The translations under genes were made by a program, and so were the position numbers. From assembly GCF_004323735.1 (NCBI RefSeq), contig NZ_CP036455.1, forward strand, positions 5,203,101 through 5,267,100: a stretch of DNA of 64,000 nt. Reading direction: 5' to 3'. The notes under the pieces are model-generated. The model was not told the DNA's origin. It ran no database searches and saw nothing but the letters and a program-made list of their open reading frames with translations. This DNA comes from Streptomonospora litoralis. GTDB lineage: Bacteria; Actinomycetota; Actinomycetes; Streptosporangiales; Streptosporangiaceae. Below are positions 10,116-26,146 of the stretch, piece by piece; position 1 is the stretch's first letter; each line of letters opens with the position of its first letter.

Positions 10116-10187
10116 GGGCCTCCATCGAACGGCCGCCCCGCCTCAGCGGGCGGGGCGGCCGGCGAGATGCACTGACCTGGTTCGCGG

Positions 10188-11507: not shown

Positions 11508-11670
11508 GACCAACTCCGTTTCTCTGGTCATGCGAGCCTGCCGTCGTCTTCGGCGGTGACAGGACCGATGGGGCCGTTTACCTGACTGCCGGCTGTCGCT
11601 GCGGTGGGATGGGGTTGGTGGGGCCGGTGCTATCGCGTACGCCGACGGCCACCGGAGCACCCAGAGGCAA

Positions 11671-11684
11671 GTAAACCGGCTTAC
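11671..11684. promoter_or_regulatory. Candidate LacI-type operator
   Basis: GTAAACCGGCTTAC is an imperfect palindrome with central CCGG (12 of 14 positions symmetric), the typical shape of LacI-family operators. It lies in the 230-base gap between the lacI-type gene and the binding-protein gene, about 165 bases upstream of the latter, and so could control the ABC operon. Confidence 0.5.
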
Positions 11685-11737
11685 CGCGTGAGTGTAGGAG
11701 AAATCACGCACGTACAGGAGAGGGGGTTATAGAGTCG

Positions 11738-12763
11738 TTACCCTGCAGATTCTCTGATCTGCAGCTCGCCGCCGAGTGTCGTCGACGCCGGAGCCTCCTG
11801 GCCCTTGAGCATGTCCAGCAGCAGGCGGGCGCCCGCACTACCCAGCGCGCGGTGCTTGCTGCGCACCGTCGTCAGCGGCGGCGACGTGAACGAGGCCAGC
11901 GCGATGTCGTCGAAGCCCGCCACGGCCATGTCGCCGGGGATGCTCAGACCGGCGTCGCCGAGGACCGAGTAGCCGCCGATGGCCATCAGGTCGCTGCCGT
12001 AGAAGATCGCCGTGGGGCGTTCGGGCAGAGCGAGAATGCGCTCGGTGGCCTGCGCGCCGCCCTCGATGGTGTAGCTGCCGTACTCCACCGGCCCCGGATC
12101 CACTCCCGCGTCGCGCGCCGCCTTCTCCCAGTGCCACCGGCGCTGGAGCGCGTGCAGCATCCCGGGGTCGCCCTGGACGTGGGCGATGCGGCGGTGGCCG
12201 CCGGCGACCAGATGGCGCACCAGCCCGCGTATGGCGTCCTCGGAGTCGTTGGTGATGGTCGGGAAGTCCGACGAGCCCTCGGGCGCCCCGACGACCACCG
12301 CCGGCGCGCCCAGGCGGCGCAGCATCGCCGGGCGCTCGTCGTCCACCCGCAGGTCGGTGACGAGGAAGCCGTCGACGAAGCGGTCGTTGAACAGCCGCTC
12401 GTAGGTGGCGGCCTCGGTGTGCGCATCGGGCACGAATCTGATCACCGTGGCGTGCTCCTCGCCGGAGAGCACCGACTCGATTCCGGAGAGGAACGAGGCG
12501 AAGAACGCGTCGAAGTCGAGAATCTCCGGCGGGCGGCGCACGACCAGGCCGATCGTGCCCAGCGGCTTGCCGTTGAGGGCGCGCGCGGCGTAGCTCGGGC
12601 TCCAGCCCAGCTCCACGGCGGCCTGGCGGATGCGCTCGCGGGTACCGGAGCTGACACCGGTCCCGTTGTTGAGCGCGCGGGACACCGCGCCCTTGGTCAC
12701 CCCAGCACGCTTGGCGACGTCGCTGATCGTGGGGCGCTTGCGTCCCGTCCTTCCGGCCGTCAT
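11738..12763 (-). CDS. LacI-family transcriptional regulator of the sugar ABC operon
   Basis: A 341-residue LacI/GalR repressor. The N-terminal helix-turn-helix is clear (TISDVAKRAGVTKGAVSRALN at about 12-32, followed by the hinge helix SPSYAARALNGK). The periplasmic-binding-protein-like effector domain follows (LGTIGLVVRRP, DGFLVTDLRVDD, RRIAHVQGDPG, FYGSDLMAIGG, VAGFDDIALASFTSPPLTTVR). The ATG at 12763 gives the normal family length; the open frame continues upstream but in Arg/Pro-rich shadow sequence. It sits just upstream of, and in the same direction as, the binding-protein and permease genes, so it is their probable local regulator. Confidence 0.93.
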   Translation of the reverse strand: MTAGRTGRKRPTISDVAKRAGVTKGAVSRALNNGTGVSSGTRERIRQAAVELGWSPSYAARALNGKPLGTIGLVVRRPPEILDFDAFFASFLSGIESVLSGEEHATVIRFVPDAHTEAATYERLFNDRFVDGFLVTDLRVDDERPAMLRRLGAPAVVVGAPEGSSDFPTITNDSEDAIRGLVRHLVAGGHRRIAHVQGDPGMLHALQRRWHWEKAARDAGVDPGPVEYGSYTIEGGAQATERILALPERPTAIFYGSDLMAIGGYSVLGDAGLSIPGDMAVAGFDDIALASFTSPPLTTVRSKHRALGSAGARLLLDMLKGQEAPASTTLGGELQIRESAG

Positions 12764-13151
12764 GGGGACAAATGGTAGTCCGCCCGCGCCCCCCGTCCGC
12801 TCGCGCGGCGGGTGCGCGGCGCAGGAGCGCAGGCCGGGAAGGCGGGGAAAGGTAGTGACGGAGGGGTATGAGCGGGCGCGGGGAGGGGCAGTGTCGGGGG
12901 CCGGACCCGATCCGCGGGGCGGTCGGCCACATTCGGCTCCGCGGCGGGCACGATGAGGAAGATGAGAGCGTCGACCGCCGACCGATGAGTCGCGGGCGCC
13001 ACGGGAGTCTGCATTGGCGTTGGGGACGGCTGCGGCTTGCGGCCTTCGAGCCCTGTACCAGCTCGGTCCGGGGCCGGCGCCGAGGCCGGATCCGGCCCCG
13101 CAAACAGCGTCCACCGCATACGCCACTCCCACCCAACGGAAGGAACCCACC
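12764..13151. other. Intergenic region between LacI and GyrI-like genes
   Basis: A 388-base divergent gap. GGAAGGA precedes the GyrI-like ATG by about 8 bases. Open frames crossing the gap have Arg/Pro-rich shadow composition and no supported starts. I see no RNA gene or clear operator in it. Confidence 0.5.
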
Positions 13152-13640
13152 ATGCAGCAGCCCGCCACCGACGCGAGCGAGTACGAACCGCGCCTCGTCT
13201 CGGCCCAGCCGTCCACCACCGCAGTCCTCCGGGCCACCGTCGAGCAGAAGGACCTGGCGAACTTCTTCGACCACTCGTTCGGCATGCTGGCACCGGCGAT
13301 CGCGGCCCAGGGCGCGAACATCACCGGTCCCGCGTTCGGCCTGTACCACGGAAACTTCGAAGACCCGCTCGACATCGAGGTCGGCTTCCCTGTCGACCGC
13401 CAGGTGGAGCAGAAGGACGACGTCGCGGCGAGCACGCTGCCCGCCGGCCGCGTCGCCCGAATGACCCACGCGGGAGCCTTCGACGGCCTGCCCGCCTCGT
13501 GGAACCGGCTGCACAGGTGGGTCGAGGAGCAGGGCTTGACCGCGCGGTCGTTCCAGTGGGAGGTCTACGTAACCGAGCCGTCGCCGGACATGAACCCGGA
13601 TGACCTGCGGGTGGAGTTGAACGTGCCGCTACTCGACTGA
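13152..13640 (+). CDS. GyrI-like small-molecule-binding domain protein
   Basis: A 162-residue stand-alone GyrI-like (effector-binding, SOUL/BmrR-type) domain. Supporting features are the paired repeats VLRATVEQKDLANFFDHSFGMLAPAI, the PAFGLYHGNF strand, the DIEVGFPVD segment and ASTLPAGRVARMTHAGAFDGLPASWNRLHRWVE followed by WEVYVTEP. In the family these domains bind amphipathic small molecules, or sometimes hydrolyse cyclopropanoid toxins; here there is no attached DNA-binding domain. The ATG at 13152 has GGAAGGA upstream. It is divergent from the LacI gene and not clearly part of an operon. Confidence 0.82.
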   Translation: MQQPATDASEYEPRLVSAQPSTTAVLRATVEQKDLANFFDHSFGMLAPAIAAQGANITGPAFGLYHGNFEDPLDIEVGFPVDRQVEQKDDVAASTLPAGRVARMTHAGAFDGLPASWNRLHRWVEEQGLTARSFQWEVYVTEPSPDMNPDDLRVELNVPLLD

Positions 13641-13784
13641 GCCGGACGGGGCCGGGGCGGCGATCGCCGTGCGGACCGGTCCGCGCCGGGAACGGTTCCG
13701 GGCGCGGTCGCCGCGGCGGATCGGCGCGCACCGGGCGCCGCACATCGATGGAAGGAAGCATCGAAGAGCGTCGGTGATGGAATC

Positions 13785-14003
13785 ATGACCGAGGCCGCTT
13801 CCGCTTCCTCCTCCAGCGCCGCTTCCGTCCCCGGCTCCGGTGCGGCGGCGCTCGATCCCGCCGACGCCGCCGAGTACGCCTCCTGGTTCGCCTGCCTGGC
13901 AGGAATCGCCGGCACTCCGATGCCGCTTCCCGGGACTGAGATGGATCTGGAATGGGGCATCCAGCGCTGGGCACAAGGCCTGCGGCCCGGACGCGGATAC
14001 TGA
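13785..14003 (+). CDS. Small hypothetical protein
   Basis: A 72-residue open frame starting at an ATG with only a weak GGAATC upstream. The N-terminus is Ala/Ser-rich and low in complexity. The second half looks protein-like (DAAEYASWFACLAGIAG, then EMDLEWGIQRWAQGL). I do not recognise it. It lies 32 bases before the Vsr gene at the edge of the accessory island. It may be a real small gene or chance coding in high-GC DNA. Confidence 0.4.
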   Translation: MTEAASASSSSAASVPGSGAAALDPADAAEYASWFACLAGIAGTPMPLPGTEMDLEWGIQRWAQGLRPGRGY

Positions 14004-14035
14004 ACCGGCGCGTGCGCCCTCTACACTCGCCTGGC

Positions 14036-14509
14036 ATGGGCGCGTTCAACGATCAGTCGGAGGCGGAGTCTGACTGGGCACCCCCCAAGGGCTCGTGGGC
14101 TTCTTCGGCAGCGAACCGGCGGAGCATGCTGGGCAACCGGAACAAGAACACCCGGCCGGAGGTTCAACTTCGCAGGCTCGTCCACGCTGAGGGACTGCGC
14201 TATCGGGTCGCCGCCAAGCCCCTGGCAAAGATGCGGCGCACGGCGGACATGGTATTCCGGCCGACACGGGTCGCTGTGTTCATCGATGGCTGCTTCTGGC
14301 ACGGATGCCCAGAGCATTTTGTGCCGCCGAAGACGAACCCTGAGTACTGGGAGCAGAAGATCGGCGGGAACATGGCCCGGGACCGCGATACGGACGCACG
14401 TTTGGAGGGCGAGGGCTGGCTGGTGCTCCGGTTCTGGGAACACCAGGCGCCTGAGGAGTGTGCGCGCACCGTCTGCGAAAGCGTCCTAGAACGCAAGAAC
14501 CTGCTGTAG
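14036..14509 (+). CDS. vsr: Very short patch repair endonuclease
   Basis: A 157-residue Vsr-family nickase, which nicks next to T:G mismatches made when 5-methylcytosine deaminates and starts repair. Typical marks: NRRSMLGNRNKNTRPEVQLR near the N-terminus, TADMVFRPTRVAVFIDGCFWHGCPEH (Asp71 corresponds to the catalytic Asp of E. coli Vsr; Cys86, His89 and Cys91 lie in the zinc/active-site region), and GWLVLRFWEHQ. Length matches the family. It is convergent with the cytosine methyltransferase gene and overlaps its 3' end by 24 bases, so the pair probably acts on the same recognition sequence. Confidence 0.93.
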   Translation: MGAFNDQSEAESDWAPPKGSWASSAANRRSMLGNRNKNTRPEVQLRRLVHAEGLRYRVAAKPLAKMRRTADMVFRPTRVAVFIDGCFWHGCPEHFVPPKTNPEYWEQKIGGNMARDRDTDARLEGEGWLVLRFWEHQAPEECARTVCESVLERKNLL

Positions 14510-15832
14510 TTGTCTGGTTCCGCCAGCCTGACCTGGCTCCTCCCGGCAAACCAGCCGCCGCTGCGGAGCATCAATCGCGCTCCCGTCACGATTGTCGTAG
14601 GCATGAAGCGCGGCGTAGACGGCTTCTGCGACGGCGCAAGCCACCGGCGGCGGGAATGCGTTGCCGACCTGCCGGTAGCGGGCCGTCTTCCCGCCGCTGA
14701 AGAAGTAGTCCTCTGGGAAACCTTGAATCAGCGCCGCTTGCTGAACCGTGAGCTTCGGGCCAACAGGGCCGAGCAAGTCGCGTTCGGCATCGACCATCAT
14801 CTCCGGGTCATTGGCCACGCCGTTGGCGTCAATCCCCAATTCGGCCCATGCCTTTTTCGCCCGAGTCGGACCGAGATCCGCTCCGCCGTGCTTTTTAGAC
14901 CCGCCGACTAGGGTCGGGGCTACAGTCCCCTTCTCCGCCGCCTGCTGCTTCCACTTCTCGAAGGCGGCATCGGCTTGCCTCTTCGGAACCACAGCCTTCG
15001 CACGCTTGAAGCGCTCCCGCATGGAGTCCTCCAGCACAGCAAGCACAGTCCGGGTGGAGAAGTCCTGCAAGCGAATCGGCTTGAAGTAAGGGGCTTCTTC
15101 ATCCCGCATGGCAACGAGGACCGCTCTCGGCCTGAGCTGGGGAACCTCGAACTCCTTGGCCTCGAGTACCTCCCACCCCAGGACGGTATACCCCATGCCC
15201 TCAAGCTGCTTTTCAATGTATACACGATAGTCGGCGAACTTGTCGGCCGGCTCCAGCAGCCCGCGAACGTTCTCAATCATCACAGCACGCGGCTGCAATG
15301 ACTCGACCAGTTTGAGCATCGCGGGGAATAGGTCCCGCTCATCATTGCGACCGAGCCTCTTGCCGGCGAACGAAAACGGCGGGCAAGGGACTCCGCCAGC
15401 CAGCAGCGCCAACTCCCCCGGCTGAGCATAGCCCTGGGCAAGAAGCTCGGCACCGCCGAACTCAGTGAGGTCCTCCCTTAGAACCAGCTTCTCTGGCTCG
15501 CCCCAGGCACGCAGCTCTGCATTGCGCCGCAGTGTCTCGCAGGCGTGGCTGTCGACCTCGATCAGAGCTTTATGGTGGAACCCAGCCTGCTCGAGCCCCA
15601 GGGCCTGCCCACCTGCCCCAGCGCAGATCTCAATCGACGTGTACTCCTCCTGGTCGCTGCCGGCCACCCGATGCCTCTCTGAAGCTAGTGCTGGGCTTCC
15701 GCCAGGAAGCCGGTCCAGCCACTCGAACATTGCTTCGACTGATCCGTTGATCCTGACGCACCCGCACGCTGCGATCAAGTCTTGACTCGGTGCTCCCAGC
15801 ATCCCGCTGATGCCACAGAGCCACATGAGCAT
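14486..15832 (-). CDS. DNA (cytosine-5) methyltransferase
   Basis: A C5-cytosine methyltransferase of up to 448 residues. Motif I SIEICAGAGGQALGLEQAGF begins at 66, motif IV GGVPCPPFSFAGKRLG has the catalytic Cys150, motif VI is IENVRG at 186-191, motif VIII is QLRPRAVLVAMR, and motif X is YRQVGNAFPPPVACAVAEA. The set is complete, so the enzyme should be active. The target is unknown; the Vsr partner fits a Dcm-like site. The true start is uncertain: ATG codons at 15832, 15802 and 15730 are all possible and all lie before motif I. It is 69 bases downstream of an HTH/coiled-coil gene. No cognate type II nuclease is recognisable next to it, apart from the divergent HNH/ParB/helicase operon. Confidence 0.93.
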   Translation of the reverse strand: MLMWLCGISGMLGAPSQDLIAACGCVRINGSVEAMFEWLDRLPGGSPALASERHRVAGSDQEEYTSIEICAGAGGQALGLEQAGFHHKALIEVDSHACETLRRNAELRAWGEPEKLVLREDLTEFGGAELLAQGYAQPGELALLAGGVPCPPFSFAGKRLGRNDERDLFPAMLKLVESLQPRAVMIENVRGLLEPADKFADYRVYIEKQLEGMGYTVLGWEVLEAKEFEVPQLRPRAVLVAMRDEEAPYFKPIRLQDFSTRTVLAVLEDSMRERFKRAKAVVPKRQADAAFEKWKQQAAEKGTVAPTLVGGSKKHGGADLGPTRAKKAWAELGIDANGVANDPEMMVDAERDLLGPVGPKLTVQQAALIQGFPEDYFFSGGKTARYRQVGNAFPPPVACAVAEAVYAALHAYDNRDGSAIDAPQRRLVCREEPGQAGGTRQLQQVLAF

Positions 15833-15901
15833 GCGGCGTCGATGCTACCGGCGCCTACATGCTCGCCGGGTGGGGAATCTCAGTGAACAGGGTCAGCTCA
15901 A

Positions 15902-16813
15902 CTAGGAGCCGGATGACACGTCTGCCTCGATTGAGATCGCTTCGTGGCGGTAGCCGGCGTCAAGGAACAGGCGCACGGTCTTCAATGCACGGCCGGTGTC
16001 TGCCTCCGCACTCCAAGCAACATCGGCAAGGAAGCTTTCGAGGAGGCTCTCCGCACACTCTGCCTTGCACGAGTCGACAAAAGCCAGCAAGGACTCCGCC
16101 GAGTGTCCGGTCGCGATAGCCCGTGCTACAAGGAGCGCGTCAGGCAGCCGGCCGGCGCGCCAGTGTCCCCGCGCGGTATCGATGTCGGCTCGCTCATCAG
16201 CAGTCGGAACCGCTCCGACAAGGTCGGCGGCGCTTTGGTTGCGCCGGTCCCCCTCGGCTGGGGGGACCGGCGCAACCATCACCTCGCTGTCCCCCGCCAC
16301 TGACTCAACTCGCTCCGAGGATTCCGCGCCGGCCCGTACTCCGGTGGGAACGGCGCTGGCATCGGCGGTATGCCCGCGCTCCAAGTCCTCGATTGCCTGC
16401 TCAAGTTCAGCAAGCTGGCGCGCAGCGTCGGCCTGCTGCGGGGCGCCTGAAGCTTCGCGCTCCAGATCCCTCTTCTCCTTGCGCAGCTCAGCCACGAGCT
16501 TTCCGCGCACCTCAGTACAGCTCCACTCGAAGAGCAGCAGGGCCAGGCTGCCGAAACTGCGTCCGGGTTTGCTCTCCAGGTCAGCGCCATAGCGGGCTTC
16601 GCGGTAGAGCCGCCAAAGGAAGACGGCCGAAGGAGTCTGCCTGAGCCCCATGCGCTTGTAGTAGCCGGGTCTGGAGGTATTCGTCAGCGTAGCTATCTCC
16701 TTGCTCCGGTAGCCCGAACACTGGAGGACGCGCGCCACCTCCTTCATCGCCTCGATGAACGATGCGGCTTCTGGTCTTCCACAGGCCTGCGGGACAGCCT
16801 CACGACTTGCCAC
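15902..16813 (-). CDS. Unknown HTH and coiled-coil protein
   Basis: A 303-residue protein I do not recognise. The N-terminal part (about 35-55, GYRSKEIATLTNTSRPGYYK) looks like a helix-turn-helix. It is followed by a conserved-looking helical segment, a coiled coil rich in Glu/Arg/Lys/Leu (about 103-147), a polar linker, and a C-terminal all-helical part with repeated Ala/Leu (LPDALLVARAIATGH, ESLLESFLADVAWSAEADTGRALKTVRLFLDAGY). I chose the GTG at 16813 because AGGAG sits about 7 bases upstream; an ATG at 16831 is also in frame. It is transcribed toward the methyltransferase gene and is divergent from the HNH operon, so it could be a regulator or a structural partner of the island. Confidence 0.75.
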   Translation of the reverse strand: MASREAVPQACGRPEAASFIEAMKEVARVLQCSGYRSKEIATLTNTSRPGYYKRMGLRQTPSAVFLWRLYREARYGADLESKPGRSFGSLALLLFEWSCTEVRGKLVAELRKEKRDLEREASGAPQQADAARQLAELEQAIEDLERGHTADASAVPTGVRAGAESSERVESVAGDSEVMVAPVPPAEGDRRNQSAADLVGAVPTADERADIDTARGHWRAGRLPDALLVARAIATGHSAESLLAFVDSCKAECAESLLESFLADVAWSAEADTGRALKTVRLFLDAGYRHEAISIEADVSSGS

Positions 16814-16911
16814 GGGAGGTCTCCTAAGCATGAGGTGGGGAGTGGATAAAACATCCCAGACCCGCGCATTGTAGTACCACCGAACGCAAGTATAGGAATA
16901 TCTGGAGACTT

Positions 16912-16924
16912 ATTGTTCAACAAT
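16912..16924. promoter_or_regulatory. Palindrome ATTGTT-C-AACAAT
   Basis: A perfect odd-centred inverted repeat with 6-base arms in the divergent promoter region. It is a possible operator for the HTH protein encoded on the left. Confidence 0.45.
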
Positions 16925-17000
16925 CCAACGATCATGCAATAAACACCTCCAGGACTGCCCCATATGTCCCAATATAGGCCGTTCTGCACTGTTCAGGGAG

Positions 17001-17020
17001 TGTCTCGGTTATCTGAGACA
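17001..17020. promoter_or_regulatory. Inverted repeat TGTCTC-N8-GAGACA
   Basis: Six-base arms around an 8-base centre, a spacing that puts the half-sites 14 bp apart centre to centre. It lies about 185 bases before the HNH operon start and could bind a dimeric regulator. Confidence 0.4.
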
Positions 17021-17205
17021 GTTCCTCCTGGAATTTCCAACGCCATAGGCTCTAGAGTCGGCAGCACGCGCCGAACAGGCGACTCTTGCCGGGCCCCCGA
17101 TGCGCTCATCCAGGTATGCGGTACATGCGTCGGCGAGCCCGGTCCGGCACGAAGGATCGTCTCCGTGCAAGCAGTGATGCTCCGATGAAACAGGAGGTCC
17201 GAGCG

Positions 17206-17907
17206 TTGGATATTTCTTGGCGAGACCTGCAGGGATCCATGAAGTCGGCTGCCCTTTGGCTGGTCCAGGAGGTGGGGGAAGGAAACATCTTCACCAAGGA
17301 AGGCCTGAGGGCAGCCTTTCCTGACAAGACCCAGATCGATCGGCGCGTCCGCGAGCTCCGGAAGCACGGCTGGGTCATCAATACAAGCAAGGAAGAGCCC
17401 GCGCTCGAGGCCAATGAGCAGCGCTTCGTCAAGGAAGGAAGGCCGGTGTGGGAAGCCGGGCAGGCGACGCTCAACCAGGGAGCGGCCGTATCTGCCGCCG
17501 AGCGGCGCCGCGTGATGGAACGGGACGGCCACATGTGCCAGTCGTGCGGCATCGTCGCGGGCGACGCCTATGCCGACGACGAGTTCTCGAACGCCCAGCT
17601 CACGATCGCGCGCCGGAAAGTGTCCTCCGCTGAAGGCGGATCCACCGTTGAGCTTGTCACCGAGTGCGACCGCTGCCGGATCGGAGGCCGGGCGGTCACA
17701 GCCGATCCCGGCTACGTGATCCAGCGGGCAGGCAGCCTGAAGGGGATCGAGAACGAGATCTTCCGTGCATGGGTAGCAGCCGGCGAACGCGAGTTCAGCA
17801 AGCTGGAACTGCTCTGGGGGGACCTCCAGTCCCTTCCGCCAGAATCCCGCGCGGAGGCTAAAGAGGCCATCCTCCGTGGTGGCAGCGGCGGAACTCCCAT
17901 CGGATAG
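17206..17907 (+). CDS. HNH-like zinc protein with winged-helix N-terminus
   Basis: A 233-residue protein. The N-terminal part (about 10-60: SAALWLVQEVGEGNIFTKEGLRAAF, then DRRVRELRKHGWVI) resembles a winged helix. The middle has the HNH endonuclease frame: RRVMERDGHMCQSCG (Cys111, Cys114), a GGSTVELVTECDRC segment (Cys154, Cys157) and the expected GG before it. The residues where the catalytic Asp-His normally sit read Ala135-Arg136, so it may bind DNA and zinc without cutting. I chose the TTG at 17206 because AGGAGG lies 8 bases upstream. It is the first gene of an operon with the ParB-like and SNF2-like genes. Confidence 0.78.
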   Translation: MDISWRDLQGSMKSAALWLVQEVGEGNIFTKEGLRAAFPDKTQIDRRVRELRKHGWVINTSKEEPALEANEQRFVKEGRPVWEAGQATLNQGAAVSAAERRRVMERDGHMCQSCGIVAGDAYADDEFSNAQLTIARRKVSSAEGGSTVELVTECDRCRIGGRAVTADPGYVIQRAGSLKGIENEIFRAWVAAGEREFSKLELLWGDLQSLPPESRAEAKEAILRGGSGGTPIG

Positions 17908-17972
17908 GCACCCGAGCCCACCAGGAGTATGCCGGTTCCGGCCGGTGCCATAGGAGACGTGAGGGAAATAAA

Positions 17973-19415
17973 TTGGCTTCACACGAGGATTTTGGAACGC
18001 CGCCGGAAGGCGCGGCCACCAGCAGGATCGTTGAGGAGCGGATCGCGGAGCGATCCAAGCAAGGGCTGCGCGAGACGTTCACGGTAAATTTCAGAGACAA
18101 GCAGATGCCGGTCGAGATTATCGATATCGAGCTCGACTCGCTGTTCTTGAATCCGGGGACCCACCGCGTCAAGGCTCAGCGCGATCTCGAGCCCGACATG
18201 GACCAAGAGCTGCGGGACAACCCCTGGGGCGCAGTCGGCCAGGGTTACCTGCGGAGACTGCTGGCGGCGACACCTGCCAACCCGACTGTGCCCGACCCTG
18301 AATTCAACGACCTCAAGGAGAACCTCGACAAGGAAGGTCAGAACGACGCCGGCCTCATCACCAGGTGGGGCGTTCTTGTCGACGGAAACACCCGGGCTGT
18401 CGCGCTCAAGGAGCTAGGCAAGCAGACCATGCGCGTTGGTGTGCTTCCGGAATCCGCGACGTGGAAGGACGTCTCGGCGGTCGAGCTGAACTTGCAGATG
18501 CGGCTCGACCAGCGCCGGGACTACACCTACATCAACAGGCTGCTCGCTTACGAGGAGCTGCACGACGGAGGGCGCGCGCCTGAGCAGATCGCCCGAATGT
18601 TCCGCGTCCAGAGGAAGACGGTCCTCCGGGACCTGTGGGTTCTGAACGAACTCCGCGACCTGATCGATCGCAGCCGGATCGGCAAGCAGTCGCTGCGGTT
18701 GATGGACTTCGAGGAAGACCAGGAAAAGCTTCGGGAGCTGCACCGGAAGTACGACGAGCTTCGTCGGACGGACCCCGATGCCGCTGAAGCTATGAAAGAA
18801 TACCGGCTTTCCGCGTTGGTGCTGAAGTTCTCGAAAACGGATCTGCGGTTGGTTGAGGACGACTTCCACCGTCGCTATCTGGAGCGTCATTTGTCCGAAC
18901 CCGTGAGAGAGGAACTAGCTCAAGAGGAAGAGGAGAGCCCCGCGGCAAGCGTTCAAATCCCCGGCCTGGGGACGTCCGTAGCCCCTGCTTCTGGACCTCA
19001 GAGCACTGGGCACGCAGCCGCACGGCGGCTGACCGACGTGCTACTCCAAGCCAAGGCCCGAGCTGGCGGCTCCACGCTCGGTGAAGGTGACCCGGCTGCT
19101 GCCCAGCGCTTGGACGAAGTCAAGGAGGCGATGAAAAGCTCGCTCAAGCTGGCCGGCTCGAACGCACGCGTCAAAAAGCAGGAGCGAGCGACAGCCGAAC
19201 GCGTAACGACTGCTGCGGAAGAGATCCGCCAATGCAGCCACGAACTGGTGCAGTCGCGGGCGAAGCAGGCCCTCGATGTTGAGGCTTTCGATGACGCACT
19301 TATGGACCTGCGGGACAGTCTCCACCAGCTTGCGAGGCATGCGTCGAAGCTCAGCAGCGAAGCGGGCGACGGGGTGGAGTGGCTGCTCGACGCGATGAAG
19401 AAGGGCAACTCCTGA
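17973..19415 (+). CDS. ParB/Srx-fold protein with HTH and long helical tail
   Basis: A 480-residue protein. The ParB/Srx-like domain covers about 45-165 and contains the signature VDGNTRAVALKELG (136-149), where ParB-type CTPase/nuclease domains bind their ligand. A ParB-type helix-turn-helix follows (RAPEQIARMFRVQRKTVLRDLWVL, 201-224). The C-terminal third (about 340-480) is charged and helical, perhaps oligomerising. There is no parA partner and no parS-like context, so chromosome partition is unlikely. The TTG at 17973 has GAGGG about 8 bases upstream. The stop overlaps the start of the helicase gene (TGATG), so the two proteins are translationally coupled and probably work together. Confidence 0.85.
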   Translation: MASHEDFGTPPEGAATSRIVEERIAERSKQGLRETFTVNFRDKQMPVEIIDIELDSLFLNPGTHRVKAQRDLEPDMDQELRDNPWGAVGQGYLRRLLAATPANPTVPDPEFNDLKENLDKEGQNDAGLITRWGVLVDGNTRAVALKELGKQTMRVGVLPESATWKDVSAVELNLQMRLDQRRDYTYINRLLAYEELHDGGRAPEQIARMFRVQRKTVLRDLWVLNELRDLIDRSRIGKQSLRLMDFEEDQEKLRELHRKYDELRRTDPDAAEAMKEYRLSALVLKFSKTDLRLVEDDFHRRYLERHLSEPVREELAQEEEESPAASVQIPGLGTSVAPASGPQSTGHAAARRLTDVLLQAKARAGGSTLGEGDPAAAQRLDEVKEAMKSSLKLAGSNARVKKQERATAERVTTAAEEIRQCSHELVQSRAKQALDVEAFDDALMDLRDSLHQLARHASKLSSEAGDGVEWLLDAMKKGNS

Positions 19416-21247
19416 TGCCTGCCGCGAAGGCATCCCTACGGCTGCTGTTCAACGCCACTCGCACAGGTGTACTGCTAGAGGCGAGCGAGGAGCGCAAGAC
19501 CGCCCTCGCCCGCCTTGCGCTCAAGTTTCCCGGTGCCGGCCGTCCGGCCCCGTGTGCGCTCGAGATCCCAATCGATGAATTCCTTGCTGGAATCGAGACT
19601 CTCGCCGCGTGGCCCGACCCCGCAGGCGTCGAGTGGGAGCCGACGCTTGCGGAACTGGTCCAAGAGGAGCTCGCATACGCCCAGGAGGCTGCCGCGCGGC
19701 TTGCCGACGGCACCTCCGGGCCAACTGTCGCTCAGGAGGAGGTCGGCGGCTTCCTCGGCGCGGGCTGGCGCGCTGACCTGACGTCGTTCCAGCGCCGGGA
19801 CATCGCCCAACTGCTCGCCGCGAGCCACGCCGCCAACTTCAGCGTTCCCGGCGCTGGAAAAACGCGGGTCGCGCTGGCTATCTATGCCGCCCGGCGCGAG
19901 GAAGGCAAGATCCGGCGTGCCTTGGTCGTTGCTCCGAAGTCGGCCTTCGAGTCCTGGGCAGCGGAGGCCGATCTGTGCTTCGAAAACAGCCCGAAGGTTG
20001 CTTTCGTCGACAGCGGGGGGCTGCTTGCCCAGGCTGAGATCCTCGTTGTCAACTACGAGCGCCTGCCGCGAATGGCCGAAATGCTGGCAGGGTGGCTCAG
20101 TGCCGCTCCGTCGATGATCGTGCTCGACGAGGCCCACCGTATGAAGCTGGGGCTGAAGGGAGCATACGGCGCCGCCTGCATGGAACTCGGCCCGCTAGCG
20201 CGGTGCCGAATGATCCTGACAGGAACGCCCGCCCCGAACGGAGCGAAAGACCTTGAGAACCTCATGTCGTTCGTCTGGCCGGGGCAGGGGCGGCGGAAGG
20301 TGCAGCATGCGGTCGCGGGTGGCGACCTCGCACACGCGAGCCGGGTACTGCGCCCGCTCTTCTCGCGAACCACTAAAGCTGAACTCGGTCTGCCGAAGGT
20401 CGACTTCAAGGTCGCGCGGGTGGAACTGCCCCCGTTGCACAACGAAATCTACGCCGCGCTGTGCGGCCAGTTCTCCCAGCGCGCCGCCGCTTCGCAGTCC
20501 GACCTTGACTCCATCGGCAGGTCGACTCTCCAACTGATCATGGCAGCCACCAGCCCAGCGCTGCTGGCCGAAGGAACAACGCGATATGAGCCGCTCGAGC
20601 ACCAGGTTCCCGCTCTCGACCCTGACGAGAACGCGTCACTTCTCTCACTGCTCCATCGGCTTCCCCAGTACGAGATGTCCCCGAAGTACAAGGAGCTGCT
20701 TCGGATTGTCTCCAAAAACCGGCAGGAAGGAAAGAAGACGCTTGTCTGGTCGACCTTCATTCGCAATCTCACTACCGCTGGCCGGCTCCTCGCCGAGTAC
20801 AACCCCGCTCTGGTACACGGCGGAGTTACCGACCGCGAGGTGCAGCTCGCCCAGTTCCGCACCGATCCGGACTGCTGGGTCCTCCTCTCCAATCCGGCGA
20901 CCCTGGGCGAAGGCATCAACCTCCACCACCACTGCCACGACGCCGTGTACATCGACCGTGACTTCATAGCTGGACGGTTTCTGCAGAGCCTCGACCGGAT
21001 CCACCGTCTCGGCCTGCCGCCCGATGCGGAAACGAACGTGACACTGCTTGTAGCGAACGGAACAGTCGATGAGGTCGTGGCAGAGCGCCTAGCGGGAAAA
21101 CTCGAGTTCATGGGACAAATCCTCGATGACCCTGGCGTGCAGGCCTTGGCAGACCCGTATGAGGAAGTGTCTTATGCCGATGGCATGACCGACCGGGATG
21201 TCCAGGTATTGATGGCCCATGCGGCATCCGTTTCGTCCAAGGGGTAA
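19415..21247 (+). CDS. SNF2-like superfamily 2 helicase/translocase
   Basis: A 610-residue SF2 ATPase of SNF2-like type. After an N-terminal domain of about 120 residues come motif Q-like TSFQRRDI (124-131), Walker A VPGAGKT (144-150), DEAH (238-241), LTGTP (268-272), a central insertion, and the second RecA domain with LVWSTFIRNL (about 443-452), LSNPATLGEGINL and motif VI QSLDRIHRLG (524-533). All key residues are present. Such enzymes translocate on double-stranded DNA and drive restriction or remodelling complexes. The ATG at 19415 overlaps the ParB-like gene stop. Confidence 0.9.
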   Translation: MPAAKASLRLLFNATRTGVLLEASEERKTALARLALKFPGAGRPAPCALEIPIDEFLAGIETLAAWPDPAGVEWEPTLAELVQEELAYAQEAAARLADGTSGPTVAQEEVGGFLGAGWRADLTSFQRRDIAQLLAASHAANFSVPGAGKTRVALAIYAARREEGKIRRALVVAPKSAFESWAAEADLCFENSPKVAFVDSGGLLAQAEILVVNYERLPRMAEMLAGWLSAAPSMIVLDEAHRMKLGLKGAYGAACMELGPLARCRMILTGTPAPNGAKDLENLMSFVWPGQGRRKVQHAVAGGDLAHASRVLRPLFSRTTKAELGLPKVDFKVARVELPPLHNEIYAALCGQFSQRAAASQSDLDSIGRSTLQLIMAATSPALLAEGTTRYEPLEHQVPALDPDENASLLSLLHRLPQYEMSPKYKELLRIVSKNRQEGKKTLVWSTFIRNLTTAGRLLAEYNPALVHGGVTDREVQLAQFRTDPDCWVLLSNPATLGEGINLHHHCHDAVYIDRDFIAGRFLQSLDRIHRLGLPPDAETNVTLLVANGTVDEVVAERLAGKLEFMGQILDDPGVQALADPYEEVSYADGMTDRDVQVLMAHAASVSSKG

Positions 21248-21431
21248 TCTCCAGATGGCAGCGGCGTCGCCCCAGCCACTACATTGTGTATGTCGGCGCA
21301 AACCCAGCGCCCTCGCCTTGTGCTGTGTAAGTCTTCTGTTGCAAAAACGTAACTCCTTTGCCTCCGCCGAGGCGCAGTCTCATGGAAGAATGCCAGAACT
21401 AGCTCCCCCAGTGCAGGTAGAATGAGCGGGC

Positions 21432-21818
21432 ATGATCTTCAAATTGAACGGTAAGGACGTCAACGACTTCAATGACGTCGCTGATACCCTCCGCGCAGGA
21501 AACGGGTATGGACACGCTTATATGGTCGACCTGCGCAACCTCACCGGATGGAAGAAGCTCTCCGGGAACATCCGCAAGGAAATCAGTTCAAGTCTCTATG
21601 CAGTCGGGGTTGGCCACCTCCCGCAGGAACTCCCCGGTAACCAGAACGAGGAAGTTCGGCTATACGCCTTGGATAGCCGTATTGGGGAAATAGTCGCAGC
21701 GGTCCTAAGCCCTTCCTACCGTGGGGACACGCTACTACAGGACCTGGTAGCAGATAGTAGCGACGCAGGCGGAAAATTGAAACGTATCCGTCAAATCCTC
21801 AACTCTCCCCACGGGTAA
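21432..21818 (+). CDS. Unknown 128-residue protein at the end of the island
   Basis: A 128-residue soluble protein with no family I recognise. It starts FKLNGKDVNDFNDVADTLRAG, continues with GYGHAYMVDLRNLTGW, and ends in DAGGKLKRIRQIL. The composition is balanced and unlike the high-GC shadow frames, so I think it is real. It follows the helicase gene in the same direction after a 184-base gap and may be expressed separately. The ribosome binding site (GAGCGGG) is weak. Confidence 0.65.
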   Translation: MIFKLNGKDVNDFNDVADTLRAGNGYGHAYMVDLRNLTGWKKLSGNIRKEISSSLYAVGVGHLPQELPGNQNEEVRLYALDSRIGEIVAAVLSPSYRGDTLLQDLVADSSDAGGKLKRIRQILNSPHG

Positions 21819-22084
21819 CCGCTCTGGGATATCAGTTCGCCGGAAGCCCAGCATTAACGCCTTTACCCTGGTTTCTTCTTGCCAGCGGGAAGTGAGCGAG
21901 GACGATCGGGGTTCGATGGTGCTGGGCGGCCTCGTCCAACGAAGATGGGATAGGGGCATGGATCGTTCTGGTGATCAGGGCCCCAAAGATTCTGCCCTCG
22001 CGACGACCGTGCCCGTACGTGCGGAGCTGGCGGCCTTGCCTCTGGACATTTCCACCCGCACCATGAACACACCGGTTTTGCCCC

Positions 22085-22243
22085 TCACAGAGACAGCAGA
22101 ACCTCCACAAGCCCGAAAGCCATCCCCACGATTCCGACGATGACACTCGTCACGGCGATCCAGCGCGCTCGGCGTACCTCGGTCTGGGCCTCTTGTGCCG
22201 AGTGGCGCTGCTCGGACAGTTGCGTAGTCAGGATTTCCGACAT
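22085..22243 (-). CDS. 52-residue single-pass membrane protein
   Basis: A short open frame from the ATG at 22243 to a TGA at 22087-22085. Residues 1-27 are polar and helical (SEILTTQLSEQRHSAQEAQ, then VRRARW). Residues 28-52 form one hydrophobic segment (IAVTSVIVGIVGMAFGLVEV) ending LLSL. It starts 18 bases after the stop of the preceding gene, in the same direction, so it is probably the third gene of a small operon. The positive-inside rule suggests a cytoplasmic N-terminus. I do not recognise a family; the shape recalls holin-like or toxin-type membrane peptides, but nothing shows that function. Confidence 0.6.
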   Translation of the reverse strand: MSEILTTQLSEQRHSAQEAQTEVRRARWIAVTSVIVGIVGMAFGLVEVLLSL

Positions 22244-22261
22244 CTCTTGCAGTAGAAGCAA

Positions 22262-22696
22262 CTAATCGTGGCTGGTGGGGGCGTCGCCCAGCCGTTGCAG
22301 GGACACCTCCAGTCCGACCCGGAGATACCTCGCCCTCGCCGTTTCGGTCGCCGTCCGCGCAGTGGACCGGCTCCGCTTCTTCGGAGGGCCGTGGCTTTCC
22401 GGAGGACGTGGCATTCCCGGTGGGGGTCCTGGGGGTCCCCCGTGTCCACGCTGCGCCGGGTCCCACGGTTGCGGGACAGCGGTCGGCGGCGGCCCTGCCT
22501 GCGGGGGCGCTCCCCCAGGTACAGGGCCACCGTGGGGACCAGAGGCACCGCCCGGAGGCTGTGACGTGTCGACGGCTCCGCCGGACGGATCGATCGCGGT
22601 GATGGCACGCGCAACCACCGTTCGCGTCCGCTCGACGGTCCAGGCCACCGTCCCGTCGGGGCTCGGGGGTCTTCGCTCATGGCCCCTCAGCATCAT
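22262..22696 (-). CDS. Proline/glycine-rich hypothetical protein
   Basis: A 144-residue protein. The first 45 residues look structured (TVAWTVERTRTVVARAITAIDP), the middle is a Pro/Gly-rich linker of about 55 residues, and the last 35 are basic and helical (ARYLRVGLEVSLQRLGD). Two adjacent ATG codons (22696, 22693) could start it. It lies between two small genes on the same strand, 92 bases after the 99-residue gene and 18 bases before the 52-residue membrane protein. Function unknown. Confidence 0.55.
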   Translation of the reverse strand: MMLRGHERRPPSPDGTVAWTVERTRTVVARAITAIDPSGGAVDTSQPPGGASGPHGGPVPGGAPPQAGPPPTAVPQPWDPAQRGHGGPPGPPPGMPRPPESHGPPKKRSRSTARTATETARARYLRVGLEVSLQRLGDAPTSHD

Positions 22697-22788
22697 GGTT
22701 TCCACACCGCTACGCAATGGCGCCGTGGAACACGGGTAAACGGCCGCGCGCCGAGAGCGATGGGGAAGGCTCTCGACGCGCGGCGTCA

Positions 22789-23088
22789 CTACATCTGGGG
22801 TGGTCGGCGGGAGACGTATGCTCCGTCGCCGGCCTGATCGAAGTGGGATGCGAACCACGACGACGACAGCAGCGACGGGCGGCAGGCCCGCGCGGGAGGC
22901 TCCTCCAGTTCGCGGACGAATGCCTCGACATCGGGATGGACGACTGTGGGCGCGTGGTCGGCGTCGGGGTCGTTGGCGGTGGCGATCCACAGGTTCTCGG
23001 TGCGGCGGATGCTCCACGTTGCGCCGTATCGGGTCTGGAGCATCGCCAGTAGGGCCGTATAGGCGTTCCGCTCGGACACGGCGCTCAC
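22789..23088 (-). CDS. 99-residue hypothetical protein divergent from the XRE gene
   Basis: A small soluble protein with a protein-like core (NAYTALLAMLQTRYGATWSI, then ENLWIATANDPD and HPDVEAFVRELEEPP). I chose the GTG at 23088, with GGGGCGAG upstream; a second GTG at 23079, with AGGTGA upstream, is equally possible. It is divergent from the XRE-type regulator gene with a 275-base gap. A small partner gene beside a TPR-type XRE regulator is a common actinobacterial arrangement, but this is not a recognisable DUF397 protein. Confidence 0.55.
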   Translation of the reverse strand: MSAVSERNAYTALLAMLQTRYGATWSIRRTENLWIATANDPDADHAPTVVHPDVEAFVRELEEPPARACRPSLLSSSWFASHFDQAGDGAYVSRRPPQM

Positions 23089-23753: not shown

Positions 23754-25048
23754 CAGGGCTGATTCAAAGTCATCTGGTGGGAGCGATGATCCAGGTCACG
23801 GCATCATGACGATCGCGGCGATCGGCCGACATACAACAACGGAGCTCCTGTAGAAGCGCGGGGACATCACTCTCCGGCTCCACAGGAACTCCGTTGCCCC
23901 ACCAGTCTGCCACGCCCCAGCCCGCCATCGGCGACTTCGCCCAAAGCCTCACCGCCGTGGACGACCCGCGCAACGAACGCGGTATCCGCCACGAAATCGG
24001 CACCGTTCTGGCCGTCGCCCTGTGCGCACTGCTGTGCGGATCCCGCTCTCTGCGCGCGATCGGCCAGTGGGCCGCCAACACGCCGCACCAAACCCGCACC
24101 CGCCTGGGCTGCCGCATCACCGACCCGGAACTGGGCGTGCGCACCGCGCCCAGCACCTCCACCATCCGCCGGGTCCTTCTGGCCGTAGCACCCGCGAGCG
24201 TGGCCGCCCTGGCCCGCCCCGAGGTGGCCGACACCCTGGCCATCGACGGCAAGACCCTGCGCGGCTCGGCCACCGCCGATCAGGCTGCCGCCCACGTCCT
24301 GGCGGCCCTGGATGCCGGCGGCCGCATCGCCGCCCAGGTCCCCGTGGCCGACAAGACCAGCGAGATCGCCGCCGTACAGGACCTGCTGGGACCGCTCGAC
24401 ATCGGCGGGGCCGTGGTCACCGCCGACGCGCTGCACACCCAGAGGGCCACCGCCCGCTATCTCACCGAGCAGCGCGGAGCCGACTACATCCTCACGATCA
24501 AGCGCAACCAGCCCACGCTGTTTGACAAGGTCAGAAGGTTGCCGTGGGCACAGGCCCCCACAGGCGACACCGACCGCCACCGGGGCCACGGCCGGGCCGA
24601 GACCCGCACCGTCAAAGCGCTGAGCATCGAGGGCCTCGGATTCCCCTACGCGGCTCAAGCGGTGCGCATCCGCCGCCACGTCACCGACCTGCGCACCGGA
24701 AAGGTGTCATGGACCTGCGCTTATGCGGTCACCAGCCTCGGGGCCGAGCGGGCCGGGGCCGCCCGGCTGGGCGCTCTGGTGCGCGGCCACTGGGCGATCG
24801 AGGCGCTGCACCATGTCCGCGATACCACCTTCGCCGAGGACTCCTGCAAGGTCCGCAGCGGCCACGGGCCGGCCAACCTCGCCGCATTGCGCAGCCTGGC
24901 CGCGCTGCTGCTCTCCGCGCTGGGGCGTCCGACCATCCCCGATGCGATCCGGTGGGTCTCCTACGCGTGCTTCACCCGCCCGCTCGATCTCATCGGGATC
25001 GCCTGACCAGCGAGAACTGAGACGATCAACGACTTTGAATCACCCCTG
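23754..25048 (+). mobile_element. ISAs1-family insertion sequence
   Basis: A complete 1295-bp element. The ends are near-perfect inverted repeats: CAGGGCTGATTCAAAGTC on the left, and on the right the complement of CAGGGGTGATTCAAAGTC (17 of 18 match). It is flanked by a 9-bp duplication, which fits the 8-10 bp known for this family. It carries a single transposase gene and interrupts the XRE regulator gene. Confidence 0.92.
23894..25006 (+). CDS. ISAs1-family transposase
   Basis: A 370-residue DDE transposase. The N-terminal ISAs1 domain is clear (DPRNERGIRHEIGTVLAVAL, then RSLRAIGQWA). The catalytic core has LAIDGKTLRGS (first Asp), VVTADALHTQ (second Asp), YILTIKRNQP and the GHWAIEALHHVRDTTFAEDSC segment, which holds the Glu. 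The frame is uninterrupted and starts at a TTG, so the element may still be active. The element's inverted repeats lie just outside this gene. Confidence 0.93.
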   Translation: MPHQSATPQPAIGDFAQSLTAVDDPRNERGIRHEIGTVLAVALCALLCGSRSLRAIGQWAANTPHQTRTRLGCRITDPELGVRTAPSTSTIRRVLLAVAPASVAALARPEVADTLAIDGKTLRGSATADQAAAHVLAALDAGGRIAAQVPVADKTSEIAAVQDLLGPLDIGGAVVTADALHTQRATARYLTEQRGADYILTIKRNQPTLFDKVRRLPWAQAPTGDTDRHRGHGRAETRTVKALSIEGLGFPYAAQAVRIRRHVTDLRTGKVSWTCAYAVTSLGAERAGAARLGALVRGHWAIEALHHVRDTTFAEDSCKVRSGHGPANLAALRSLAALLLSALGRPTIPDAIRWVSYACFTRPLDLIGIA

Positions 25049-26146
25049 CTAGTGTTCTGCGCCTGAAATCCGTTTCAGATATCTGGCGAGGGAGTCGAGG
25101 ACCTCTTCGGCGGTCTTGCGCCAGACGAACGGGCGAGGCTCGGTGTTCCACCGCTCGATCCAATCGCGCACGTCCTTCTCCAGCGCGGCCACGCTCTTGT
25201 GCACCCCGCGGCGGGTGAGCTGGGCAGTGAGATAGCCGAACCAGCGCTCGACCTGGTTGATCCAGGAGGAACCGGTCGGGGTGAAGTGCACATGGAAGCG
25301 TGGATGGCGGGCCAGCCACTGGTGGATCAGCGGGGTCTTGTGCGTGGCGTAGTTGTCGCAGACCAAGTGGATGTCCAACTCGGCCGGGACCGCCTTGTCG
25401 ATGCTGATGAGGAACTTCTTGAACTCGGCCGCGCGGTGCCGGCGGTGCAGCTCGGTGATGACGGTGCCGTCGGCGATGTTGAAGGCGGCGAACAGGCTGG
25501 TGGTGCCGTGGCGGACGTAGTCGTGGGTGACCCGTTCGGGCGCACTCGGCATCATCGGCAGCACCGGCTGGGAGCGGTCCAGGGCCTGCATCTGCGACTT
25601 CTCGTCCACGCACAGCACCACCGCCCGCTCGGGCGGGTTGTGATACAGCCCGACCACGTCGACCACCTTCTCCACGAACAGCGGGTCGGTGGAGATCTTG
25701 AAGCCCTCGGTGCGGTGCGGCTTCAGGTCGAAGTGCCGCCAGATCCGCCCGATGGTCGACCGGCTCAGCCCGCTGCGCCGCGCCATCGAGGCCCGCGACC
25801 AATGGGTGGCATCGGGCGGGGTCTGCTCCAGGGTCAGTTCGACGACCTGCTGGACCTGGTCGAGCAGGATCGAGGGCGGCCGGCCCGGCCGGGGCTCATC
25901 GGCCAGCCCGGCCAGGCCGTGCTCGATGAACCGGCCCCGCCACTTGGCCACGGTCGGCACAGAGATCCCCAACTCGGCGGCCACGTCCTTGTTGAACGCC
26001 TCGGGCTCCGCGCATGCCAAGACAATCCGGCAGCGCAACGCGTAGGCCTGGGTCGAGGTCGCCGCCCGCGCCCCGCGCACCAGCTCCCGGCGGTCGGCCT
26101 CGGTCACCGTCAACTCGGCCTTCTTCGGCCGACCCGTCTTCACCAT
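25049..26146 (-). CDS. IS630-family transposase
   Basis: A 365-residue transposase of the IS630/Tc1-mariner superfamily. The N-terminus has a helix-turn-helix (NKDVAAELGISVPTVAKWRGRF) and a second HTH (ARRSGLSRSTIGRIWRHF). The DDE core shows VVLCVDEKSQMQALDRSQP (first Asp), DIHLVCDNYATHKTP (second Asp) and SSWINQVERWFGYL (Glu). The frame is intact. The stop codon TAG is completed by the target sequence: TA comes from the duplicated target dinucleotide and G from the flanking CTAG. Confidence 0.94.
   Translation of the reverse strand: MVKTGRPKKAELTVTEADRRELVRGARAATSTQAYALRCRIVLACAEPEAFNKDVAAELGISVPTVAKWRGRFIEHGLAGLADEPRPGRPPSILLDQVQQVVELTLEQTPPDATHWSRASMARRSGLSRSTIGRIWRHFDLKPHRTEGFKISTDPLFVEKVVDVVGLYHNPPERAVVLCVDEKSQMQALDRSQPVLPMMPSAPERVTHDYVRHGTTSLFAAFNIADGTVITELHRRHRAAEFKKFLISIDKAVPAELDIHLVCDNYATHKTPLIHQWLARHPRFHVHFTPTGSSWINQVERWFGYLTAQLTRRGVHKSVAALEKDVRDWIERWNTEPRPFVWRKTAEEVLDSLARYLKRISGAEH

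What the first reader, a model, noticed from the sequence alone, without database searches (positions are those of the whole stretch)
14036..21818. Candidate undescribed defence or DNA-modification system: Vsr/C5-methyltransferase plus HNH-ParB-SNF2 operon
The sequence shows a complete C5-cytosine methyltransferase with a Vsr partner, an unknown HTH/coiled-coil gene, and a divergent operon of an HNH-like protein, a ParB/Srx-fold protein and an SNF2-like helicase coupled by TGATG, followed by an unknown 128-residue gene. Methyltransferase, motor and nuclease-type parts together are the usual ingredients of restriction-type defence. I cannot match this set to DISARM, BREX, Dnd/Ssp, Zorya or classical R-M systems. 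The inference is that the ParB-like protein recognises DNA state and guides the translocase and the HNH protein on DNA lacking the methylation.
Basis: partly seen in the sequence, partly recalled or inferred. Interest (0 to 1): 0.82.

Follow-up and report, generated by a model that had tools for sequence, protein, structure and literature searches.

The report
Dead restriction enzyme with motor proteins
A conserved bacterial gene set pairs a DNA methyltransferase with a restriction-enzyme relative that has lost its cutting site, a ParB-like protein and a DNA-translocating motor, which suggests a way of telling self from foreign DNA in which a former cutting enzyme only reads DNA for a motor.

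Summary
The genes are real, intact and one conserved system, but the 'HNH nuclease' looks dead. In 86 of 86 other distinct loci from genome searches (Actinomycetota) ParB comes with SNF2, the HNH-like protein and a C5 methyltransferase, and in 83 of 86 with Vsr. HNH-like, ParB and SNF2 co-vary tightly; Dcm and Vsr less so.

The HNH-like protein belongs to a winged-helix/HNH restriction-type family. The catalytic His is kept in 0 of 89 ParB-linked rows, but in 8 of 9 readable ParB-less rows and 8 of 11 second copies. ParB-linked rows form one clade.

The design recurs with unrelated enzymes: four alphaproteobacterial plasmids use a type II enzyme relative without its acidic motif residues; Lactiplantibacillus and Priestia plasmids use a Sau3AI relative without the N-terminal part.

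Best explanation: a methylation-gated system in which a dead restriction enzyme reads unmethylated sites for ParB and SNF2. The outcome (cutting, silencing, or stripping rival enzymes) is untested, and several loci do not fit. No named system matched as a set in PADLOC 2023, Pfam, NCBIfam or the papers I saw.

The parts
14036..14509 (+). Vsr (very short patch repair endonuclease)
   Evidence: PF03852 2.7e-16, TIGR00632 above cut-off; in 83 of 86 distinct loci
14486..15832 (-). C5-cytosine methyltransferase (Dcm); true start probably 50-60 codons inside the ORF
   Evidence: PF00145 2.4e-52; in 86 of 86 distinct loci, 84 within 5 kb of ParB
15902..16831 (-). divergent HTH/coiled-coil gene, probable regulator
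   Evidence: no convincing family hit; weak C-terminal match to the regulator of locus L015 (6e-4); same place and divergent orientation as the HTH genes found in 71 of 86 loci
17185..17907 (+). winged-helix/HNH restriction-type protein without catalytic His/Asn (proposed reader of unmethylated sites)
   Evidence: four zinc Cys kept, His/Asn absent; single clade; of three His-keeping relatives scanned, one passes the Pfam HNH cut-off and two fall just under it
17973..19415 (+). ParB-like protein: ParB N-domain, HTH, C-terminal helices
   Evidence: AlphaFold2 model pLDDT 92.4, Foldseek to Noc, KorB and ParB-CDP at 1e-4 to 1e-3
19415..21247 (+). SNF2-type double-stranded DNA translocase, no nuclease domain found
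   Evidence: PF00176 4.1e-15; GAGKT, DEAH and QSLDRIHR invariant in 9 of 9 aligned; PDB chromatin remodellers
13630..22807 (.). inserted island holding the system
   Evidence: synteny to sister genomes ends at 13,627-13,655 and resumes at 22,808 (G394) or 26,862 (G396)
21432..21818 (+). 128-aa ORF, not part of the conserved set
   Evidence: no relative in 88 loci nor in 20 other related genomes

Best explanation
A methylation-gated self/non-self system derived from type II restriction-modification. Dcm methylates host sites and Vsr repairs deaminated 5mC (by family only). A restriction enzyme that has lost catalysis (wH-HNH here; another type II enzyme in Alphaproteobacteria; a Sau3AI C-terminal domain in Bacillota) binds the same site when it is unmethylated (inferred). 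It recruits or loads the ParB-like protein and the SNF2 translocase onto that DNA (inferred), which then block or process the invader. Where a DUF3883 gene follows SNF2 its product probably makes the cut; in minimal loci such as this window the outcome is either non-nucleolytic or made by an unlinked nuclease (open).
For: Core of ParB, SNF2, HNH-like and Dcm in 86 of 86 distinct loci. The ParB-linked wH-HNH copy lacks the catalytic His in 89 of 89 rows (87 distinct loci with the window), while 8 of 11 second copies in the same loci and 8 of 9 readable ParB-less rows keep it; the ParB-linked rows are one clade, support 100/99. HNH-like/ParB/SNF2 distances correlate at 0.86-0.95, against 0.34-0.58 with Dcm or Vsr (66 loci, not corrected for species relatedness). 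Two further lineages pair ParB and SNF2 with a different restriction-enzyme relative that has lost its motif residues or its N-terminal part. DUF3883 lies on the same strand behind SNF2 in 25 of 86 loci (24 within 20 bases or overlapping, one 613 bases away), with a GYD...ExK-type pattern read in 23 of 25.
Against: No functional data. The canonical CTP motifs of ParB are not kept (GERR is GNTR; ENxxR is ELxLQxR), so a CTP clamp is a guess. 39 of 86 loci have none of the four nuclease families searched. Loci that do not fit: a Streptomyces albidoflavus linear plasmid has ParB and SNF2 with no wH-HNH and no Dcm found; Paracoccus L228 has ParB and SNF2 with no Dcm or known reader found in 16 kb; Lactiplantibacillus argentoratensis L233 has ParB and SNF2 near a full-length Sau3AI enzyme; Exiguobacterium L230 has a ParB-like gene and SNF2 about 4 kb from an AspBHI-N/HNH gene that passes Pfam and looks intact. 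In the alphaproteobacterial enzyme an Asp remains two residues before the lost one, and the C-terminal extension of the Priestia proteins (about 250 aa) is of unknown function.
Confidence: 0.56

Rival explanations
1. Anti-restriction module: the methyltransferase, a dead subunit of the cognate restriction enzyme and an SNF2 stripper protect the carrier against active cognate restriction systems, the motor removing restriction enzymes from DNA.
For: NaeI-family genes near 22 of 86 loci; His-keeping wH-HNH/Dcm/Vsr units, mostly with a NaeI-family gene, beside the module in several loci; best PHROG of SNF2 is phrog_62, DNA helicase, 1.3e-62, which I recall as DarB-like; DarB-like methylase-helicases are discussed as acting on injected DNA (passages of PMC5512222).
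Against: 39 of 86 loci hold none of NaeI, DUF3883, Z1 or DUF262; DUF3883 with D...ExK in the operon argues for an offensive part.
Confidence: 0.2
2. ATP-dependent restriction in which the ParB-like domain replaced HNH as the nuclease, SNF2 being the motor.
For: ParB/Srx-superfamily domains with nuclease activity are described (GmrS, Osa, Bce_0392; passages of PMC5512222); pocket residues N139 and R141 invariant in 74 of 74, G138 nearly so.
Against: Closest structures are Noc, KorB and ParB; HTH and C-terminal helices kept; a separate nuclease gene is added in many loci.
Confidence: 0.17
3. Chance or generic defence-island neighbours.
For: The island site holds a different Dcm/Vsr pair in a sister species; four ParB/SNF2 loci outside the 86 do not fit the pattern.
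Against: Shared core and co-variation over 86 loci and recurrence in other phyla.
Confidence: 0.02

Closest known systems
Type II restriction-modification with C5 methyltransferase, Vsr and an HNH-, NaeI- or Sau3AI-type enzyme
   Same: Dcm, Vsr, homologous restriction enzyme, divergent regulator, island site
   Different: the restriction enzyme homologue lacks catalytic residues and is tied to ParB and SNF2
MORC/paraMORC R-M operons with SWI2/SNF2 helicase (Iyer et al. 2008, PMC2292703, passages read)
   Same: cytosine methylase, Vsr, SNF2 helicase and HNH described in such neighbourhoods
   Different: no GHKL ATPase in the core here (one locus, L013, has one beside it); ParB and a dead restriction enzyme instead
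CglI/NgoAVII (PMC4267653, search listing only)
   Same: methyltransferase plus restriction protein plus separate ATPase
   Different: their R protein cleaves; no ParB mentioned in the listing
DISARM, Druantia, Zorya, BREX
   Same: SNF2 scores to ZorD 2.2e-18, DpdE 6.7e-14, HmaA 3.9e-13, DrmD 5.3e-12; Dcm to DruM 2.5e-110 and DrmMII 1.9e-34
   Different: no hit to their other core parts in the lists shown (for Dcm only the best 25 of 58 families were shown)
phage DNA helicases of phrog_62 (recalled as DarB-like)
   Same: SNF2 scores 1.3e-62
   Different: not fused to an adenine methylase; cellular operon

Membership tests
Type II R-M | methyltransferase | tested here: met
   PF00145 2.4e-52
Type II R-M | catalytically competent restriction endonuclease for the same site | tested here: not met
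   wH-HNH without catalytic His in 89 of 89 ParB-linked rows; own genome has no NOV_C/DUF3883 match. By sequence only; other, unknown nucleases are not excluded
HNH endonucleases | His/Asn of the HNH motif with zinc Cys | tested here: not met
   Cys kept, His/Asn lost. Of three His-keeping relatives scanned L150 passes Pfam HNH (32.6 against 21.4 bits); L149 (21.0) and the L034 second copy (20.9) fall just short
ParB CTPase clamps | ParB fold | tested here: met
   Foldseek Noc/KorB/ParB, best 1.2e-4
ParB CTPase clamps | GERR and ENxxR CTP motifs (recalled) | tested here: not met
   GNTR and ELxLQxR; three Bacillota forms have DGNRR
DISARM | DrmA, DrmB, DrmC | tested here: not met
   no DrmB or DrmC in the lists shown; DrmA only 0.0063 on SNF2; DrmMII and DrmD do score
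Druantia | DruE helicase | tested here: not met
   DruM-like methyltransferase hits only, in the lists shown
Zorya | ZorA/ZorB | tested here: not met
   ZorD-like SNF2 hits only
BREX | PglX and PglZ | tested here: not met
   only BrxH hits on SNF2 (best 1.2e-6) in the lists shown
Dnd/Ssp | DndC/DndD or SspB-D | tested here: not met
   only a 0.021 hit of Vsr to SspC in the lists shown
Any defence system | protection against phage or plasmid | not testable with these tools
   needs bench work

The most novel reading that the evidence does not exclude
A previously undescribed class of immune or anti-mobile-element systems, present in at least three phyla, in which nuclease-dead type II restriction enzymes of unrelated families have independently become readers of unmethylated DNA that load a ParB-like protein and an SNF2 remodeller, acting on foreign DNA without cutting it (a bacterial counterpart of methylation-guided chromatin remodelling).
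Probability: 0.32. Interest if true: 0.95.

Novelty: new variant of a known kind. Interest (0 to 1): 0.85.

Why it matters
It suggests that restriction enzymes can repeatedly be turned from cutters into readers for a motor, and it makes a concrete question testable: what does an SNF2 remodeller do to DNA marked as foreign only by missing cytosine methylation? It would also offer natural dead, sequence-specific, methylation-sensitive DNA-binding proteins, and a model for how translocase-type defences may arise from two-gene restriction systems.

Tried and rejected
ParB as a CTP clamp: kept only as a possibility because canonical motifs are altered (the profile-profile score itself was poor, probability 1%). 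HNH as nuclease: rejected on sequence. 128-aa gene as part of the set: rejected. Fold search of the wH-HNH model gave no significant PDB match, so the HNH reading rests on sequence. Viral contigs: no relative; phage records: two partial matches only. Sequence search of the ParB profile against the PDB gave nothing meaningful. The first genome scan, with the single ParB sequence, found nothing; the alignment query worked. Literature: nothing in the listings, nor in the passages I read, describes this set; DefenseFinder models were not available and PADLOC is of 2023.

Sampling limits: the 80 named loci are the best 80 of 221 by ParB score, so co-occurrence is measured close to this ParB family; duplicates L066=L011 and L086=L015 were removed for the count of 86. 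Four of 110 wH-HNH rows (more than 90 gap positions) were left out of the tree, and near-copies remain in it (for example L152/L153). Distance correlations used 66 loci with at most one called Dcm and plausible lengths. Outside Actinomycetota only plasmid, phage and viral-contig records were examined, so the plasmid setting of those forms is a sampling effect. Of 14 ParB-less relatives of the alphaproteobacterial enzyme 11 were fetched (H25-H27 were not), and one of its four ParB-linked members was put through PADLOC. Of 75 plasmid records with an SNF2 relative I looked at 12. L232 and L234 are near-copies (ParB 99% identical). E-values from my own scripts are for a handful of sequences; database-wide, the window ParB finds Mesorhizobium at 2e-12, Rhizobium 1e-7, Lactiplantibacillus plantarum 5e-7, Azospirillum 4e-6 and Kozakia 1e-5. 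The DUF3883 motif was not readable in L034 and L041.
Full report
What is there. The window lies in a 5.8-Mb genome of two contigs. Between 14,036 and 21,247 it holds Vsr, a C5-cytosine methyltransferase (Dcm), a divergent HTH/coiled-coil gene, and a run of a winged-helix/HNH-like gene, a ParB-like gene and an SNF2 gene, the last two overlapping by TGATG. Above curated cut-offs Pfam identifies Dcm, Vsr and SNF2, and NCBIfam Dcm and Vsr. PADLOC gives DruM (2.5e-110), MTase_II and DrmMII hits to Dcm (best 25 of 58 families shown), a Vsr model, ZorD, DpdE, HmaA and DrmD hits to SNF2, JetA at 0.0027 on ParB, and nothing for the HTH, HNH-like and 128-aa proteins. PHROGs add a weak HNH hit (1.6e-4), ParB hits (best 7e-5) and a strong hit of SNF2 to phrog_62 (1.3e-62).

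It is an island. GC is 60-65% in 2-kb windows against mostly 67-77% elsewhere, with one other dip to 65% near 60-62 kb. Synteny with sister genomes of the genus ends at window 13,627-13,655. In G394 the stretches homologous to window 13,627 and 22,808 lie about 1.1 kb apart; in G396 those homologous to 13,655 and 26,862 lie about 2.3 kb apart. In G250 the same left flank runs into a different Dcm (406 aa, about 25% identical) and another Vsr (58%), so the site is a place of restriction-system turnover.

Conservation. In a class-wide draw ParB is in 9 of 394 genomes; a profile search finds the same 9 at E 1.5e-180 or lower and two marginal hits. All 9 loci have the HNH-like protein and SNF2 beside ParB and a Dcm; 8 of 9 have Vsr. 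Vsr is found in 140 of 394 genomes, one to three copies each, so nearness in 8 of 9 is far above chance. A scan of GTDB contigs gave 221 relatives from 263 stretches, of which the best 80 were kept. Over 86 distinct loci (88 less two duplicates): ParB 86, SNF2 86, HNH-like 86, Dcm 86 (84 within 5 kb), Vsr 83; a recognised HTH gene in 71, divergent and upstream in all 71; DUF3883 in 25, NaeI-family in 22, Z1 in 15, DUF262/GmrSD-N in 6; none of these four in 39 (30 of the 71 loci with more than 6 kb held on both sides). Vsr was not found in L013, L073 and L077. Pairwise distances over 66 loci correlate at 0.95 (ParB-SNF2) and 0.86 (HNH-like with each), but 0.51-0.58 with Dcm and 0.34-0.51 with Vsr (not corrected for species relatedness). 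The trio behaves as one machine, and Dcm/Vsr as a needed but more exchangeable partner.

The HNH-like protein looks dead. In 9 aligned members no His is invariant although the four zinc Cys are; over the 88 loci and the window no conserved column fits a catalytic His. A profile scan of the 88 loci, 14 further stretches and the window gave 110 rows. The ParB-linked copy has the HNH His replaced (often A-R-R) in 89 of 89 rows. Of 11 second copies in the same loci, 8 keep G-H, one has G-R, and two (L021, L076) belong to a third type without it. Of 10 rows from ParB-less stretches, 8 keep G-H (two of them near-identical), one has G-R (L156, beside a Z1 gene), and one does not cover the site. Of these 10 stretches 7 hold both Dcm and Vsr, one Vsr alone at a contig end, two neither; no ParB of this family was found in them, and only one (L155) gave weak SNF2 matches. 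Of three His-keeping relatives scanned, one passes the Pfam HNH cut-off and two fall just under it. In a tree of 106 rows the 88 ParB-linked rows are one clade with support 100/99; the His-keeping label needs three changes. A single loss, kept with ParB and SNF2 across at least six families of Actinomycetota, fits best; the window row has a long branch.

The same trick with other enzymes. Four alphaproteobacterial plasmids (Mesorhizobium, Azospirillum, Rhizobium, Kozakia) carry ParB, SNF2 and DUF3883 genes in this order (in Mesorhizobium a transposase gene lies before DUF3883), with Dcm annotated nearby in three and Vsr in two, preceded by a protein of about 280-320 aa; the Mesorhizobium one matches a PADLOC type II restriction enzyme model at 2.1e-19. 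Of its 14 other plasmid relatives I fetched 11; the 10 annotated ones sit directly behind a Dcm with no ParB or helicase annotated within about 4 kb (L227 has no annotation). All 11 keep a PD-(D/E)XK-like pattern, DY ... (E/D)LKG (my reading of the alignment, no structure); in all four ParB-linked members the Asp is Ile or Val and the Glu/Asp before xK is replaced, although another Asp lies two residues before the first. In Bacillota, Lactiplantibacillus plantarum (with Vsr) and two near-identical Priestia plasmids (no Vsr annotated) carry Dcm, a ParB-like gene, SNF2 and a Sau3AI-like protein. The Lactiplantibacillus protein aligns to residues 261-509 of Sau3AI at about 1e-41, and all three lack the N-terminal part with the ELK motif that three solo Sau3AI homologues keep; the Priestia ones have an extra C-terminal part of about 250 aa. 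That the missing part is the catalytic domain and the rest an allosteric site-binding domain is recalled, not from a call. The ParB relation is distant but real: database-wide the window ParB finds the Lactiplantibacillus one at 5e-7 and the alphaproteobacterial ones at 2e-12 to 1e-5; the Priestia ParB is linked through the Lactiplantibacillus one (35% identical).

Loci that do not fit. A linear plasmid of Streptomyces albidoflavus has ParB (36%) and SNF2 with a divergent HTH gene but no HNH-like or Dcm gene found. Paracoccus L228 has ParB and SNF2 without a recognised reader or Dcm in 16 kb. Lactiplantibacillus argentoratensis L233 has ParB and SNF2, a Dcm fragment and, across two transposase genes, a full-length Sau3AI enzyme with its own Dcm. 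Exiguobacterium L230 has a ParB-like gene and SNF2, with a Dcm and an AspBHI-N/HNH gene that passes Pfam about 4 kb away. Rhizobium sophoriradicis L231 has another SNF2/ParB/DGQHR arrangement.

Mechanism. The ParB model (pLDDT 92.4) has an N-domain, HTH and C-terminal helices; its closest solved structures are Noc, KorB and ParB with nucleotide, but the canonical CTP motifs are altered. SNF2 keeps Walker A, DEAH and QSLDRIHR in 9 of 9, and no nuclease domain was found in it. A dead restriction enzyme is likely to keep recognition of its site; because its partner Dcm methylates that site in the host, binding would mark unmethylated, foreign DNA. I therefore propose that the dead enzyme reads DNA state and that ParB and SNF2 act on it. 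The last step is open: DUF3883 is a plausible cutter where present (25 of 86, and the four alphaproteobacterial plasmids), while minimal loci like this one may act without cutting or with an unlinked nuclease; the own genome has no DUF3883-type match. An anti-restriction role is the main rival. The Dcm target-recognition core is shared with methyltransferases next to NaeI-family enzymes but also with nearly all other rows, so the target guess GCCGGC (recalled) is weak.

Compared with what is known. By sequence the set fails type II R-M for lack of a competent enzyme, and DISARM, BREX, Druantia, Zorya and Dnd/Ssp for lack of core parts in the lists shown. Nearest in idea are R-M operons with SNF2 helicases, cytosine methylases, Vsr and HNH described around MORC proteins (passages of PMC2292703) and the CglI/NgoAVII systems (PMC4267653, search listing only). 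Papers seen in passages: PMC3710099, PMC12839542, PMC10853773, PMC8011034, PMC2292703, PMC5512222; all others in listings only. None of what I saw describes this set.

Noticed in passing
L029, L034, L041, L053, L062, L063: Second units (Dcm, His-keeping wH-HNH, Dcm, Vsr; five of the six with a NaeI-family gene) lie directly beside the dead-HNH module.
   Followed up: partly
L162 (G250), 7681-9550: Same chromosomal site as the window island but holding an unrelated Dcm and another Vsr: a turnover hot spot.
   Followed up: partly
L181 (Streptomyces albidoflavus linear plasmid), 11083-15714: ParB-SNF2 pair of this family with a divergent regulator but no reader or methyltransferase found; possibly a solitary form.
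   Followed up: partly
L230 (Exiguobacterium plasmid), 1-9994: ParB-like and SNF2 genes with a 1120-aa protein, a Dcm and an AspBHI-N/HNH gene that looks intact.
   Followed up: partly
L231, 6212-11461: SNF2, ParB N-terminal, DGQHR and radical SAM genes in a row on a Rhizobium plasmid.
   Followed up: no
L156 (G157), 9841-12180: wH-HNH-like gene (G-R motif) beside a Z1-domain gene without detected Dcm.
   Followed up: no
window 23894-26146: Two transposase-like ORFs (by eye) to the right of the island.
   Followed up: no
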